Origin: Gammaproteobacteria bacterium
GTDB taxonomy: Bacteria; Pseudomonadota; Gammaproteobacteria; Acidiferrobacterales; Sulfurifustaceae
Length of the DNA: 64,000 nt
Assembly: GCA_016199745.1 (NCBI GenBank)
Contig: JACQFZ010000008.1
Coordinates: 1 to 64,000, forward strand
Reading direction: 5' to 3'
In this document: piece by piece, positions 56,178 to 59,257 of the stretch
Numbering within the stretch: position 1 is the stretch's first letter
Layout: the number at the start of each line of letters is the position of its first letter
The notes under the pieces: generated by a model
What the model was told of the DNA's origin: nothing
Databases searched by the model: none
Seen by the model: the letters and a program-made list of their open reading frames with translations, nothing else
Position numbers and translations under genes: made by a program

Positions 56178-56363
56178 ATGCTGGATATTGAAGTTCGTGG
56201 ATTTTTCGGCCTGCTCGTCTTAATCGCCGACATCTGGGCCATCGTTAAGATCGTTCAGTCACGTGCGTCTACGGGTAAGAAGGTGCTGTGGATCGTTCTG
56301 ATTATCTTGTTGCCGATATTGGGGCTGTTGCTTTGGTGGTTGTTTGGGCCTTCGGATAAGTAA
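56178..56363 (+). CDS. 61-residue PLDc_N-type membrane protein
   Basis: Two transmembrane segments (GLLVLIADIWAIVKIV and VLWIVLIILLPILGLLLWWLFG) ending GPSDK. This is the PLDc_N module that usually precedes phospholipase D domains (as in cardiolipin synthase) but also exists alone. ATG 56178 follows gaggcgg. It is divergent from the NYN gene; the phospholipase D-VTT gene lies about 2.9 kb away on the other strand. Confidence 0.8.
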   Translation: MLDIEVRGFFGLLVLIADIWAIVKIVQSRASTGKKVLWIVLIILLPILGLLLWWLFGPSDK

Positions 56364-56411
56364 GTAGGAATCGCCCTCTTACGAGGGCGATGACGGTCGA
56401 GATAATAAATT

Positions 56412-56505
56412 GTAATCAGCGGATGCTCCGCCCCGCAGCCCAGGGATACTTTCTCTTGCTGATGCAAGAGAAAGTATCCAAAGAGAAGCACCCCCCGGTG
56501 GCGCC
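56412..56505 (+). repeat. hairpin repeat, family 3 copy A
   Basis: Flanks taatcagcggatgctccgcc then ccgcagcccag on the left and agaagcaccccccggtggcgc on the right enclose a perfect 16-bp hairpin (arms 56444-56459 and 56464-56479, loop tgat). Copy B, 0.5 kb away and inverted, has nearly identical flanks but a hairpin that differs at five base pairs, all compensated on both arms. Confidence 0.88.
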
Positions 56506-56628
56506 AACATGCCACTGCGCTTCTTGGGTTTAGGCCGGTTCCCCCTCGGGCTTATGCCAAAACCCTGCGAGGTTCGGGCATGCGCCACAGCGGGAATAAC
56601 GACAACCACAACCGCCCCCACCCTAACC

Positions 56629-56725
56629 ATTCCCGCCCAGTGCGCGCGCCCGTTCGGCGGCGTGAGTGTCCACGGGACACTCACGAAAACCCCGCCTCAC
56701 CCCCCGCTGCGCTGGGGAGGGGATG
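56629..56725 (+). repeat. hairpin repeat, family 2 copy 2
   Basis: Shares attcccgcccagtg, cgttcggcgg and ccgcctcacccccc with the copy at 39681. Between the last two lies the perfect 11-bp hairpin CGTGAGTGTCC-ACG-GGACACTCACG (56661-56685). Relative to copy 1 the stem differs at four base pairs, all compensated. Confidence 0.78.
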
Positions 56726-56931
56726 AAAAGCAAAAGCGCCTAGACAGTCAGTTGCACAACACCCACCGCCACCAATCCATTCCCTCCCCCGCCACAGCGG
56801 GGGAGGGCTAGGGTGGGGGGTGAGTTGAATGGGTTTTTGCGGTTGTCGTTGCTGTTAATCCCCGTGTGGCGCTTTCCGAGCATCGGAGCTTTTGGCCTCG
56901 AGCGCGCAGGAGGCGCGCGTCTGGCTCAGTA

Positions 56932-56965
56932 CAGGGATGTACTGTGCCAGACATAGTTAATAGCC
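56932..56965. repeat. 15-bp hairpin in the repeat-rich gap
   Basis: gtctggctcagtaca (from about 56920-56934) and tgtactgtgccagac (from about 56938-56952) pair over 14 of 15 positions around a short ggga loop. It stands between the G/C-rich stretch and family 3 copy B. The coordinates are accurate to within some 15 bases. No T run follows. The role is unknown. Confidence 0.5.
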
Positions 56966-56990
56966 AAAAGTGAGAAGCGGAGGATGCTTT

Positions 56991-57086
56991 GCGCCACCCC
57001 GGGGGGTGCTTTCTTTTGGTTCCTTTTCTTTGCACAAGCAAAGAAAAGGAACCCTGGGTTGCGGGGCGGAGCATCCCGCTGATTAT
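56991..57086 (-). repeat. hairpin repeat, family 3 copy B (inverted)
   Basis: Read on the minus strand it starts tataatcagcgggatgctcc and ccgccccgcaaccc, and ends agaaagcaccccccggggtgg. The internal perfect 16-bp hairpin (57018-57033 with 57038-57053, loop acaa on the plus strand) has a sequence different from copy A. Flanks of the two copies match almost throughout. Confidence 0.88.
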
Positions 57087-57127
57087 ATTTATTACACTCG
57101 ACCATCATCGCCTCCGCAGGAGGCGAT

Positions 57128-59257
57128 TCAACTACTCGACCCCACCGACTGCCGCCGTAACAACCACCGCCGCAACCCATAAATCATTCCAAACAACAAC
57201 ACGATAATCACTCCCAACCCCAGCCCAGTACCCACACCAGGCTGTTGCAACGTCGCATCAACCCGATCGATGAACAACACAATCGCAAGAATGCCCGGAA
57301 TCATCCCAAGAACCGTGCCCAACAGAAAGTCGCGCAAACCAATGTGCGATGCGCCGGCGACAAGATTCACGACGGTAAATGGCGCTACCGGTAGCAATCG
57401 CACCAACGTCACAGCGAGCACACCACGTTCAGCTAGGCGGCAACTCAAACGGTTAAGACGCGAACCGGCGAAGCGACGAATCGTATGCCGGCCAAGCATG
57501 TGACCGATGCCATAGACCACCCAAGCACTGAGTAGCGAACCGATGAAGGAATAGACGATGCCTTGCACCGGCCCAAAGGCCAGCACCGTAACGACAACCA
57601 ACAGAGTCACTGGAAACGCCAACAACCCGCCCAAGATAAATGCACCGATGCCAACGAATGGCGCGCTCGGCGAATGTCGGAAACCGACGATATAACTACT
57701 CAGCGTTTGCGCGTCGAGCCAATGCGATAGCGGCGTCCAGTGCCAAGCAGCGGCGAACGCTACCACCAGCATCAGCATAGTGACGGAAATAATGAGGCGC
57801 CGGTGCGCCGGTGCTCGCTCTTCCATGGGAATGAATTGAGCGGCGATTTTATCGGGATCGATCGGACGTTCGGGATCGAGCAACTCGGGCTTGGGAAGCC
57901 AGGAGACGATTTGATCCGGCGCCGGCACCGGGATTTCCTTCAACGTATGGCGGTTAGTGCCCCGCAAGCTCTCGATCGCGGCAATCAGCGAGCCACGACG
58001 AGTTAGCGCCTGCGCCACCCGTTCGGTGGAAGTACCCAGATGTTCGGCCAACAAACGTTCGCGTAAACGGGCGATACCGCGGCGCACGCGCCGCTCGCCG
58101 CCGCTCTCGAACGCGAGATCACATTCGGTGTCGATACCCATGGAGCGATTATTCAAGTTCGCCGAGCCGATCCGTGCGAATTCGTCGTCAACCACCATCA
58201 CTTTGCTATGCACGTTAATGCACTGTTGGCCGAGCCCGTCGACATCGGGGTAATACGCACGCAAGCGCCCGTAGCGATCGGCCGCACGCAGCCGATTCAG
58301 CAGGCGATCGCGTAATACATCCATCGTCTGCTGCGACAACCAACCGTCGGTGCACAACGCCAACACCATCACGATCTCGGGGCCGTCCGGCTCCTGCAAG
58401 CGTTCGATGAATGCATCGGCAATGCTATTGGCGGTGAAGAATTGATTCTCGATATAGATGTGACGCTGCGCGGCGCGGATCGCATCGCCGTACAACAGCT
58501 CGACCTCACGCACCTCGGCACGGCTGTTGTGTGCTGGGTCGGTACGGGCAATGGCGATTTGCACGTTCTCGACGTCGACCGGCACTTGCGCCGGCCAAAG
58601 ATCGTGCGCCATCGACGATAGCGCCGGCAATCGCCGGCCGGTTGTACGTTGCCAGCGCTCGCGCGCCAAATCACCGAGCGCGCCGGCGACGACGCCATCG
58701 ACCATCACCTGCATGTCATGAAACGGTCGATACGACACGCCGTTGTCGACGCGACGCGGATCGTCCGGCCGATGCTCGATCGTGTCCCAACGCGCATGCG
58801 TAAGATCGAGCCCGCCAACGAACGCGAGCGTGTCGTCGAGCACGACGACTTTTTGGTGATGACATCCGCCCGGCGGATGATTGCCGTCCATTCGGAAATG
58901 CAGCCGCCGGTGTGTGCGCCAGTCGAGTTTGTAAATCGGCAACCATTCACGATCGAGCGCGTACAACATGGCGAAATCCCACGTCAGCACGTAAGCCTGC
59001 GGACCGTTCGGGCGCGACACCAGCGCATTGAGATATTCGCCTAACGCGATCGGCAACGGTCCCGTTTCACCGTCGCGCAGCAGCGGTACACGACTATCGA
59101 TATCCCAACCGAGCATTAATAGCGAACGCGTCGTCCGCGCGGCGGCAAAATAAAACGCACGGAAGTAATCAGCAGCGTCGATGAGATAAGCGACGCGGCG
59201 CGCCGACGCGACGCGCCAGCAGTTATAGCCCGGCTTTAAAATGCTGTAACGCGTCAC
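57128..59257 (-). CDS. phospholipase D / cardiolipin synthase fused to a VTT (DedA-like) domain
   Basis: A 709-residue fusion. The N-terminal two-thirds is a PLD-family phosphatidyltransferase/phosphodiesterase with both HKD motifs: HHQKVVVLDDTLAFVGG (about 134-150) and HSKVMVVDDEFARIGSANLN (about 343-362). The C-terminal third (about 500-700) has some five to six membrane helices with the SNARE-associated/VTT signature ALVRLLPVAPFTVVNLVAGA-like block, as in DedA proteins, thought to move lipids. It could make or break phospholipids and help them cross the membrane. Start is GTG 59257, overlapping the stop codon of the preceding small gene (GTGA). Confidence 0.88.
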   Translation of the reverse strand: MTRYSILKPGYNCWRVASARRVAYLIDAADYFRAFYFAAARTTRSLLMLGWDIDSRVPLLRDGETGPLPIALGEYLNALVSRPNGPQAYVLTWDFAMLYALDREWLPIYKLDWRTHRRLHFRMDGNHPPGGCHHQKVVVLDDTLAFVGGLDLTHARWDTIEHRPDDPRRVDNGVSYRPFHDMQVMVDGVVAGALGDLARERWQRTTGRRLPALSSMAHDLWPAQVPVDVENVQIAIARTDPAHNSRAEVREVELLYGDAIRAAQRHIYIENQFFTANSIADAFIERLQEPDGPEIVMVLALCTDGWLSQQTMDVLRDRLLNRLRAADRYGRLRAYYPDVDGLGQQCINVHSKVMVVDDEFARIGSANLNNRSMGIDTECDLAFESGGERRVRRGIARLRERLLAEHLGTSTERVAQALTRRGSLIAAIESLRGTNRHTLKEIPVPAPDQIVSWLPKPELLDPERPIDPDKIAAQFIPMEERAPAHRRLIISVTMLMLVVAFAAAWHWTPLSHWLDAQTLSSYIVGFRHSPSAPFVGIGAFILGGLLAFPVTLLVVVTVLAFGPVQGIVYSFIGSLLSAWVVYGIGHMLGRHTIRRFAGSRLNRLSCRLAERGVLAVTLVRLLPVAPFTVVNLVAGASHIGLRDFLLGTVLGMIPGILAIVLFIDRVDATLQQPGVGTGLGLGVIIVLLFGMIYGLRRWLLRRQSVGSSS

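What the first reader, a model, noticed from the sequence alone, without database searches (positions are those of the whole stretch)
56412..57086. Repeat pair with five compensated base-pair changes in its hairpin
Copies at 56412-56505 (plus) and 56991-57086 (minus) have almost the same flanks. Each holds a perfect 16-bp hairpin with a 4-base loop. The arms differ at five positions between the copies, and each change is matched on the partner arm. Such covariation points to selection on pairing, as RNA or cruciform. The two copies face each other across 0.5 kb, so the whole block could also pair.
Basis: seen in the sequence. Interest (0 to 1): 0.6.

Follow-up and report, generated by a model that had tools for sequence, protein, structure and literature searches.

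The report
Dispersed triple-helix pseudoknot RNA repeat
The hairpin pair is two facing copies of a repeated non-coding element, found in many bacterial genera, whose letters change together in a way that predicts a three-stranded knot of RNA and, in many hosts, docking sites for the regulator protein CsrA.

Summary
In detail: two perfect 16-bp hairpins, five differences, all compensated. They are 2 of 24 full copies in this genome, and the family reaches 90 of 369 sampled genomes of its class. The hairpin is one part of a larger fold. On the strand opposite to the first copy (+ for the second), 4 loop bases pair with a segment 5' of the hairpin (pseudoknot, 17 different loop words), and the 8-base pyrimidine linker between them is a mirror copy of the hairpin's 5' arm (99.4%, against 65.6% for a direct copy). 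That is the pattern of a U.A-U / C.G-C major-groove triple helix. Imperfect pairs are G.U on that strand (127), almost never A.C (5): the molecule is single-stranded, most likely RNA. Further 5' lie GGA-loop hairpins like CsrA/RsmA sites, often two, about 28 nt apart; one in the window fits the CsrA consensus letter for letter. They occur in 24 of 44 CsrA-bearing and 0 of 13 CsrA-less complete genomes, and in some lineages match Rfam TwoAYGGAY. Copies often form head-to-head pairs; one unit tested is absent in two congeners. The fold is well supported; CsrA binding is likely; expression and function are untested.

The parts
56370..56530 (-). Element 1 (left half); its RNA strand is the minus strand
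   Evidence: repeat family; strand from G.U asymmetry
56972..57127 (+). Element 2 (right half); its RNA strand is the plus strand
56370..56391 (-). Element 1 outer hairpin P1 (ATCGCCCTC..GAGGGCGAT), 6 nt past the end of the left ORF (56178-56363)
56417..56436 (-). Element 1 GC-rich segment P2
56444..56479 (-).
56480..56487 (-). Element 1 third strand L1 (AAAGAGAA on +, UUCUCUUU in the RNA), mirror of the S2 5' arm
   Evidence: first row of A5; family test
56489..56492 (-). Element 1 pseudoknot strand S1a (GGUG in the RNA), pairs with loop bases 56461-56464 (CAUC), 4 of 4 with one G.U
   Evidence: first row of A5; family test
56902..56918 (+). GGA-loop hairpin 1 (GCGCGC-AGGAG-GCGCGC), CsrA-like site 5' of element 2
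56927..56944 (+). GGA-loop hairpin 2 (CAGTAC-AGGGAT-GTACTG); holds GUACAGGGAUGU, which fits the CsrA SELEX consensus RUACARGGAUGU
57005..57008 (+). Element 2 pseudoknot strand S1a (GGUG); 3 of 4 bases pair with loop 57033-57036 (CACA)
   Evidence: second row of A5; family test
57010..57017 (+). Element 2 third strand L1 (UUUCUUUU), mirror of 57024-57031
57018..57053 (+). Element 2 stem S2 with its loop
57061..57079 (+). Element 2 P2 hairpin, followed by TGATTATATT (scored terminator-like)
57107..57127 (+). Element 2 outer hairpin P1, abutting the stop codon of the convergent ORF 57128-59257 (-)

Best explanation
A dispersed non-coding RNA element, here a head-to-head pair between two convergent ORFs. 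SHOWN by sequence covariation: in the RNA strand (minus for element 1, plus for element 2) the order is GGA hairpins (where present) - S1a (4 nt) - L1 (8 pyrimidines) - S2 (15-16 bp) with S1b in its loop - P2 - P1; S1 and S2 form a pseudoknot, and L1 matches S2 base for base as the third strand of a Y.R-Y triple helix (U.A-U, C.G-C), as in the telomerase pseudoknot. INFERRED: the molecule is RNA rather than single-stranded DNA; L1 lies in the major groove of the upper 8 bp of S2; the 6 bp below are the offset at which a short strand crosses the narrow A-form major groove. LIKELY: in hosts with CsrA/RsmA the GGA hairpins, often two about 28 nt apart, bind a CsrA dimer. PROPOSED, untested: with no promoter-like site found in the window's unit, the RNA is made by read-through from neighbouring genes, the triple helix blocks 3'-to-5' decay, and the trimmed RNA persists as a CsrA-binding RNA (sponge). 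In CsrA-less hosts the pseudoknot is kept without GGA hairpins, so that part serves the element itself.
For: Hairpin covariation (99.3% of S2 cells paired in 60 copies). Pseudoknot: 58 of 70 distinct loop/downstream combinations with at least 4 bp against mean 9.7, maximum 20 in 2000 shuffles, loops left free by the search pattern, 57 of the 58 in one register, 17 loop words; 87.1% and 91.8% of cells paired, covariation score 0.72 and 0.78 against 0.19 and 0.17 shuffled, 0 of 500. Third strand: mirror identity 99.4%, direct copy 65.6% (81.5% at the best slide), shuffled between copies 80.2%, maximum 86.9%; 394 U.A-U, 83 C.G-C, 1 G.U-A, 1 C.C-G, 1 level unpaired. Strand: G.U 127, A.C 5, separately 42:2 and 85:3. 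CsrA: GGA in 186 of 352 upstream hairpin loops against 7-19 of 153-186 in five shuffles; closing C-G in 157 of 163, two sites 26-29 nt apart in 56 of 58 copies with two; 24 of 44 CsrA+ and 0 of 13 CsrA- genomes, p 2.7e-4. Rfam TwoAYGGAY, in a clan with RsmW and RsmY, hits 15 times in 20 sources; 9 of the 15 have an element 25-56 nt 3' and all 9 are on the predicted strand. Gain or loss: filled in G006, empty in G014 and G018. Pairs head to head 48 of 54, median spacing 453 bp.
Against: No transcript evidence of any kind. Elements also occur in genomes without CsrA (12 of 90 element-bearing genomes lack a CsrA hit, 45 of 279 of the others), and 20 of 44 CsrA+ genomes show no canonical GGA hairpin, so CsrA binding cannot be the general function; by family the CsrA association is only borderline (16/32 against 0/5, p 0.057), and two incomplete genomes without a CsrA hit do have a GGA hairpin. 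The window's unit has GGA hairpins only 5' of the right half and no Rfam match. The best-scoring TwoAYGGAY hit (L128) has no element detected 3' of it. S1 of element 2 pairs at 3 of 4 positions. A short-stem subclass (L047, L055, L059, L116) does not follow the mirror rule. C.G-C triples want protonated C. Single copies show no strong orientation bias to neighbouring genes (37 against 26, crude ORFs), which does not favour a 3'-UTR role in cis. No empty site could be read for the window's own unit.
Confidence: 0.6

Rival explanations
1. The structured molecule is single-stranded DNA, not RNA: the ends of a mobile element are folded on one strand and read by a transposase (IS200/IS605 or RAYT style), giving REPIN-like head-to-head units.
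For: Units are often palindromic pairs and one was seen filled in one species and empty in two others; G.T is also better tolerated than A.C in folded DNA, and Y.R-Y triple helices are classic in DNA (both recalled). Two Methylomonas loci hold a RAYT gene between two elements.
Against: Only those two of the roughly 290 loci held gave a RAYT hit, and the L160 one has a REP-like GTAGGGTGGGC palindrome of its own nearby (sequence; the REP label is recalled); the own genome's RAYT matches lie on contigs without a listed element. GGA hairpins of CsrA type on the same strand, tied to host CsrA, have no known role in DNA.
Confidence: 0.2
2. The compensated changes come from a mutational mechanism: template switching repairs imperfect palindromes, so both arms change at once without selection.
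For: Double changes without G.U intermediates at several levels of the hairpin; perfect arms in most copies.
Against: Palindrome repair cannot make a mirror copy (L1) nor keep G.U but remove A.C on one strand; loop-S1 pairing also covaries.
Confidence: 0.04
3. The unit is a bidirectional terminator and mRNA 3'-end protector between convergent genes; the triple helix is the 3' barrier and CsrA binding a later addition.
For: The window's outer hairpins abut the right ORF's stop codon and lie 6 nt past the left one; convergent flanks in 20 of 48 head-to-head pairs against 174 of 834 adjacent ORF pairs; terminator-like scores 6 against 1.3 expected.
Against: Of the 48 pairs, 22 lie between tandem and 6 between divergent ORFs; units also lie inside gene rows of one direction (dapF-DUF484 in Pasteurella; aceF-lpdA in Burkholderia, a single element); four of the six 'terminator' tails are the pyrimidine L1/S2 region itself; singles lack orientation bias.
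Confidence: 0.2
4. Ordinary repeat with no function: a decayed MITE or REP-like family whose hairpins are left over from mobility.
For: Mosaic copies, tip-swapped variants, assembly breaks at copies.
Against: Three-strand covariation, pseudoknot covariation and strand-specific wobble across many families need continuing selection.
Confidence: 0.06

Closest known systems
TwoAYGGAY RNA (Rfam RF01731; candidate motif of Weinberg et al. 2010, PMC2864571, only the table row seen)
   Same: Two adjacent hairpins with AYGGAY-type loops; matches the 5' domain of elements in several lineages, 7 of 15 hits at or above the gathering score, 9 of 15 with an element just 3' on the same strand; also listed for gamma-Proteobacteria.
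   Different: The matched stretch does not include the pseudoknot/triple-helix domain; no paired, dispersed arrangement was seen described; the window has no match and of 18 named loci only one reached the score, far from the fetched element.
CsrA/RsmA-sequestering sRNAs, e.g. RsmU of Xanthomonas (PMC7694677, abstract and passages read)
   Same: GGA motifs; RsmU is cut from a 3' UTR without its own promoter and binds RsmA.
   Different: RsmU is reported as conserved only in Xanthomonas and as processed from one 3' UTR; this family is dispersed, multi-copy and multi-genus and carries a triple-helix pseudoknot. No binding was tested here.
Telomerase-RNA-type pseudoknot with major-groove U.A-U triples; guanidine-III riboswitch (PMC5696562, search listing only); preQ1-II (recalled)
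   Same: Same strand order: stem A strand - pyrimidine linker - stem B with stem A's partner in its loop; linker is the third strand.
   Different: Eight stacked, covarying triples; no ligand or reverse transcriptase link was looked for or seen; dispersed repeats.
REP/BIME/REPIN and ERIC-type interspersed palindromes (recalled)
   Same: Intergenic, palindromic, tens of copies per genome, inverted pairs.
   Different: Much longer half-units, covarying pseudoknot and third strand, no consistent RAYT link.

Membership tests
H-type pseudoknot with Y.R-Y major-groove triple helix (telomerase class of fold) | Loop of the hairpin pairs with an upstream strand (pseudoknot), shown by compensated changes | tested here: met
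H-type pseudoknot with Y.R-Y major-groove triple helix (telomerase class of fold) | Linker matches the stem as a parallel Hoogsteen third strand (U.A-U, C.G-C) with covariation | tested here: met
   (copies not fetched by pattern); not met in a short-stem subclass
H-type pseudoknot with Y.R-Y major-groove triple helix (telomerase class of fold) | Physical triple helix (probing, melting, structure) | not testable with these tools
   needs SHAPE/DMS, UV melting or a structure
Telomerase RNA | Template region and a partner reverse transcriptase | not tested
   no template sought; only the fold is compared
TwoAYGGAY RNA (RF01731) | Match at or above the Rfam gathering score | tested here: inconclusive
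   met by 7 of 15 hits (6 of them with an element just 3') and by 1 hit about 3.5 kb from the fetched element; window not met
CsrA/RsmA-binding sRNA | ANGGA motifs in hairpin loops, several per RNA, suitably spaced | tested here: met
   met for 69 of 163 elements, not for the rest
CsrA/RsmA-binding sRNA | Host has CsrA | tested here: met
   GGA form seen only in CsrA+ genomes and in two incomplete ones without a CsrA hit
CsrA/RsmA-binding sRNA | Expressed and bound by CsrA | not testable with these tools
   needs RNA-seq, EMSA or CLIP
RAYT/REP (REPIN) system | Cognate RAYT gene flanked by the repeat | tested here: not met
   2 RAYT-bearing loci among those held; own RAYT matches on contigs without a listed element
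RAYT/REP (REPIN) system | GTAG/GGAG tetranucleotide at the foot of a short hairpin | not tested
   not scanned for

The most novel reading that the evidence does not exclude
A very widespread class of bacterial interspersed RNA: mobile head-to-head units whose transcripts fold into a covarying eight-level triple-helix pseudoknot and which, where the host has CsrA/RsmA, often carry a CsrA docking pair, so that tens of genomic copies act together as a distributed, transcription-coupled CsrA buffer. The triple helix would be the element's own stability or mobility handle.
Probability: 0.3. Interest if true: 0.9.

Novelty: new variant of a known kind. Interest (0 to 1): 0.75.

Why it matters
Three strands that covary in register are rare evidence for an RNA triple helix; here they come from a repeat seen in about a quarter of the sampled genomes of its class (90 of 369). 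In the sources searched no Rfam family reached its cut-off on the pseudoknot domain, and only TwoAYGGAY did on the neighbouring GGA domain. It gives that orphan motif a larger architecture, a strand and a testable partner (CsrA), and offers a natural series of triple-helix variants (including G.U-A and C.C-G levels) for biochemistry. If the copies sequester CsrA, part of the Csr network of many bacteria lies in repeats that annotation skips.

Tried and rejected
RAYT/REPIN mobilisation: a RAYT gene (NCBIfam REP_Tyr_transpos) lies between two elements in two Methylomonas loci, but no other locus held gave a hit, and own-genome RAYT matches are not on contigs with a listed element; kept only as part of a rival. 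Element presence does not depend on CsrA (12 of 90 element+ genomes without a CsrA hit, 45 of 279 element-; my comparison by eye of the tables, the 12 confirmed); only the GGA form does.

Direct-copy reading of the third strand (alternative pairing with the left arm, a switch): tested against the mirror reading and clearly worse (65.6% in register, 81.5% slid by one, against 99.4%). In the first set of 107 copies mirror was better in 81, equal in 16, direct better in 10; the ten are 7-level symmetric tracts, where the two can hardly be told apart, the short-stem subclass and one short stem.

Phages and E. coli: no match. Plasmid collection: 15 records. Sequence words in papers: none. Searches for a description of such a repeat or RNA; none found in the listings, but most subscription journals are not held.

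Rows dropped before counts: one search used 84 pattern sites collapsed to 70 distinct combinations; one search left out 12 of 297 elements whose loop was not 6 nt; one search left out 73 of 285 with unclear layout; A5 holds the 60 distinct 8-level copies not fetched by pattern, A6 61 of the 92 from pattern-fetched loci (one copy of a MAG labelled Ruminococcus and 30 others left out, the latter for list length); one search set aside 2 CsrA- genomes of 73% and 87% completeness (G154, G219), both of which DO have a GGA hairpin. In pattern-fetched copies the L1 word was fixed by the search pattern, so they are not used as evidence for the triple helix (one search uses the others; the models that found part of those include the L1 columns, and 11 of the 60 are own-genome copies). 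The hairpin finder scores sense G.T as +0.3 and A.C as -1.6, which works against the asymmetry reported. In one search G226 (degenerate CsrA hit, E 5e-13) was counted as CsrA+ without GGA; the family labels behind 16/32 and 0/5 were assigned by hand. Of the 67 genomes, 21 are from one more distant family and mostly have weak matches.

Gene neighbours were called with a crude longest-ORF method, so the context numbers are rough. Names recalled and not from a call: telomerase and preQ1-II geometry, A-form groove crossing at 6-7 bp, the triplex code G.TA and T.CG, REP/ERIC features.

Full report
WHAT WAS CLAIMED AND WHAT IS THERE. The outer hairpins abut the right ORF's stop codon and lie 6 nt past the left ORF's end.

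A FAMILY. A search of the own genome found many more copies; with a covariance model 24 full-length copies are counted, 7 of them with a larger module in place of the hairpin tip. Plasmid-collection records add Pasteurella, Pseudoalteromonas and the fusobacterium Ilyobacter. None in phages or E. coli.

THE HAIRPIN. In 36 aligned copies 97.9% of cells pair and 7 of 15 pairs have double changes, 0 of 500 shuffles as good, and no slid register comes near. In 60 copies of fixed layout 99.3% of S2 cells pair.

WHICH STRAND, AND RNA OR DNA. Over 285 copies and 3705 levels, 3532 are Watson-Crick. The same holds in copies not fetched by pattern (42 against 2, in 29 and 2 loci) and in pattern-fetched ones (85 against 3). 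This is what RNA gives; single-stranded DNA of that strand is not excluded by this test alone.

PSEUDOKNOT. The pattern left the 6 loop bases and everything 3' of the purine tract free. Of 70 distinct combinations, 58 have at least 4 bp of loop complementarity in the next 8 bases; dealing the downstream parts out anew gives 9.7 on average and never more than 20 in 2000 rounds. 57 of the 58 use the same register, and 17 different loop words occur. Pair counts on two gapless alignments agree: 87.1% (60 copies not fetched by pattern) and 91.8% (61 copies), covariation 0.72 and 0.78 against 0.19 and 0.17 shuffled and at most 0.20 slid. Of the window's copies, the first makes 4 of 4 pairs (one G.U), the second 3 of 4 (rows).

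THIRD STRAND. Between S1a and S2 lie 8 pyrimidines (188 of 212 copies with a clear layout; 7 in 20, 9 in 4; 73 more unclear). They equal the mirror image of the S2 5' arm at 99.4% of positions in the 60 copies not fetched by pattern; a direct copy gives 65.6% (81.5% slid by one); exchanging arms between copies gives 80.2%, at most 86.9% in 2000 rounds. Ten different arm sequences occur, e.g. UUUUCUUU with UUUCUUUU, UUUCUCUU with UUCUCUUU, UUUCUUUC with CUUUCUUU. In RNA terms the levels are 394 U.A-U, 83 C.G-C, one G.U-A, one C.C-G and one level without a Watson-Crick pair. No copying process that I know makes mirror sequences; a Hoogsteen third strand parallel to the purine strand requires them. 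Strand order and linker type are those of the telomerase pseudoknot (recalled). The constant 6 bp below the triple zone would be the span of the narrow A-form groove; this is inference. A short-stem subclass departs from the rule.

CsrA-LIKE SITES. In 194 flanks 5' of L1, 186 of 352 hairpin loops contain GGA, against 7-19 of 153-186 in five shuffled sets. Canonical ones have a C-G closing pair in 157 of 163 and, where two occur, lie 26-29 nt apart in 56 of 58. In the window's second one GUACAGGGAUGU fits the SELEX consensus RUACARGGAUGU given in PMC4347634 (passages read). By genome: 24 of 44 with CsrA have a canonical GGA hairpin, 0 of 13 (at least 99% complete) without CsrA; by element 67 of 117 and 0 of 44 (CsrA status). 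Two incomplete genomes without a CsrA hit do have one. By family the contrast is 16 of 32 against 0 of 5, p 0.057. An independent model agrees in part: Rfam TwoAYGGAY hits 15 times in 20 sources, 7 at or above its cut-off. Nine of the 15 have an element 25-56 nt 3', all on the predicted strand; five lie within 95 nt of the end of the fetched stretch on the outgoing side; the best-scoring one (L128) has no element detected 3' of it. The three CsrA-less sources in that set had none. One more hit, below cut-off, sits 48 nt 5' of the Aeromonas element of L217, same strand. In 18 named loci only one hit reached the cut-off, about 3.5 kb from the fetched element, and the window has no match. So TwoAYGGAY is the 5' domain in some lineages, not a name for the whole.

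ARRANGEMENT AND GAIN OR LOSS. Of 54 pairs called, 48 are head to head (RNA 5' ends inward), median spacing 453 bp; 20 of the 48 lie between convergent ORFs against 174 of 834 adjacent ORF pairs in the same loci; 98 elements were called single. In one genus a unit of G006 is missing from G014 and G018, where the flanking matches adjoin across about 80 bp instead of about 700. For the window's unit the flanking genes are 4 and 11 kb apart in the two relatives where both were found, so no empty site could be read.

EXPLANATION. I commit to a dispersed non-coding RNA element whose transcript folds into a triple-helix pseudoknot; where the host has CsrA it often binds a CsrA dimer just 5' of it. 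Proposed: read-through transcription (no promoter-like site in the unit), 3' trimming stopped at the triple helix, and persistence as a CsrA-binding RNA, much as RsmU of Xanthomonas is cut from a 3' UTR (PMC7694677, abstract and passages read). Degrees of belief: pseudoknot 0.97, triple helix 0.85, RNA rather than DNA 0.8, CsrA binding in GGA-bearing hosts 0.65, sponge or stability role 0.35.

KNOWN OR NEW. The fold type, CsrA-binding RNAs and interspersed palindromes are each known; I found no description of their union (listings only unless said), and no Rfam family reached its cut-off on the pseudoknot domain in the sources searched.

Noticed in passing
G000 (own genome), 15 places not listed: The own genome has 15 CsrA-family matches where most listed genomes of the class have 1 to 3 (G004 of the same family has 6, the next highest listed 8).
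   Followed up: no
G000:C22:373295-373424, C51:342-480, C30:8682-8820, C52:35561-35699, C27:7805-7943, C56:139418-139556 and 140023-140160: Seven own-genome copies keep the lower S2 arms but carry a module that makes them about 40-50 nt longer (GTCGCTCCTGCG...GTACAGC) in place of the hairpin tip.
   Followed up: partly
window 56646-56707: A 62-bp stretch of the centre of the unit recurs at 86-90% in several genomes of another genus of the family (G016, G012, G015; shorter in G013, G006): a second repeat family inside the unit.
   Followed up: no
window 56782-56807: Central hairpin CCCTCCCCCGC-CACA-GCGGGGGAGGG; similar CCTCCCCCT/AGGGGGAGG hairpins stand at the centre of Dyella units (L158, L199).
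   Followed up: no
L047, L055, L059, L116: A short-stem subclass (CTTTGG-TTTC-GGCCAAAG type, tail AAAGCCATTTTGC) shares flanks but not the mirror rule.
   Followed up: partly
L160:5530-5961, L176:3229-3651: RAYT transposase genes lie between two elements in two Methylomonas species; near the L160 one stands a REP-like GTAGGGTGGGC palindrome.
   Followed up: yes
L273:2501-2548 (Ilyobacter polytropus plasmid pILYOP01): The pseudoknot element (loop CTTGCC with GGCA) occurs in a fusobacterium, 6 places in one record: far transfer or a wider range.
   Followed up: partly
L269:2495-2953 (Pasteurella multocida): A full inverted pair sits inside the dapF-DUF484-xerC gene row.
   Followed up: partly
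L193: A MAG labelled Ruminococcus flavefaciens holds an element; contamination is likely.
   Followed up: no
L128:1953-2018: The strongest TwoAYGGAY hit has no pseudoknot element detected 3' of it; either a decayed partner or a free-standing TwoAYGGAY.
   Followed up: partly
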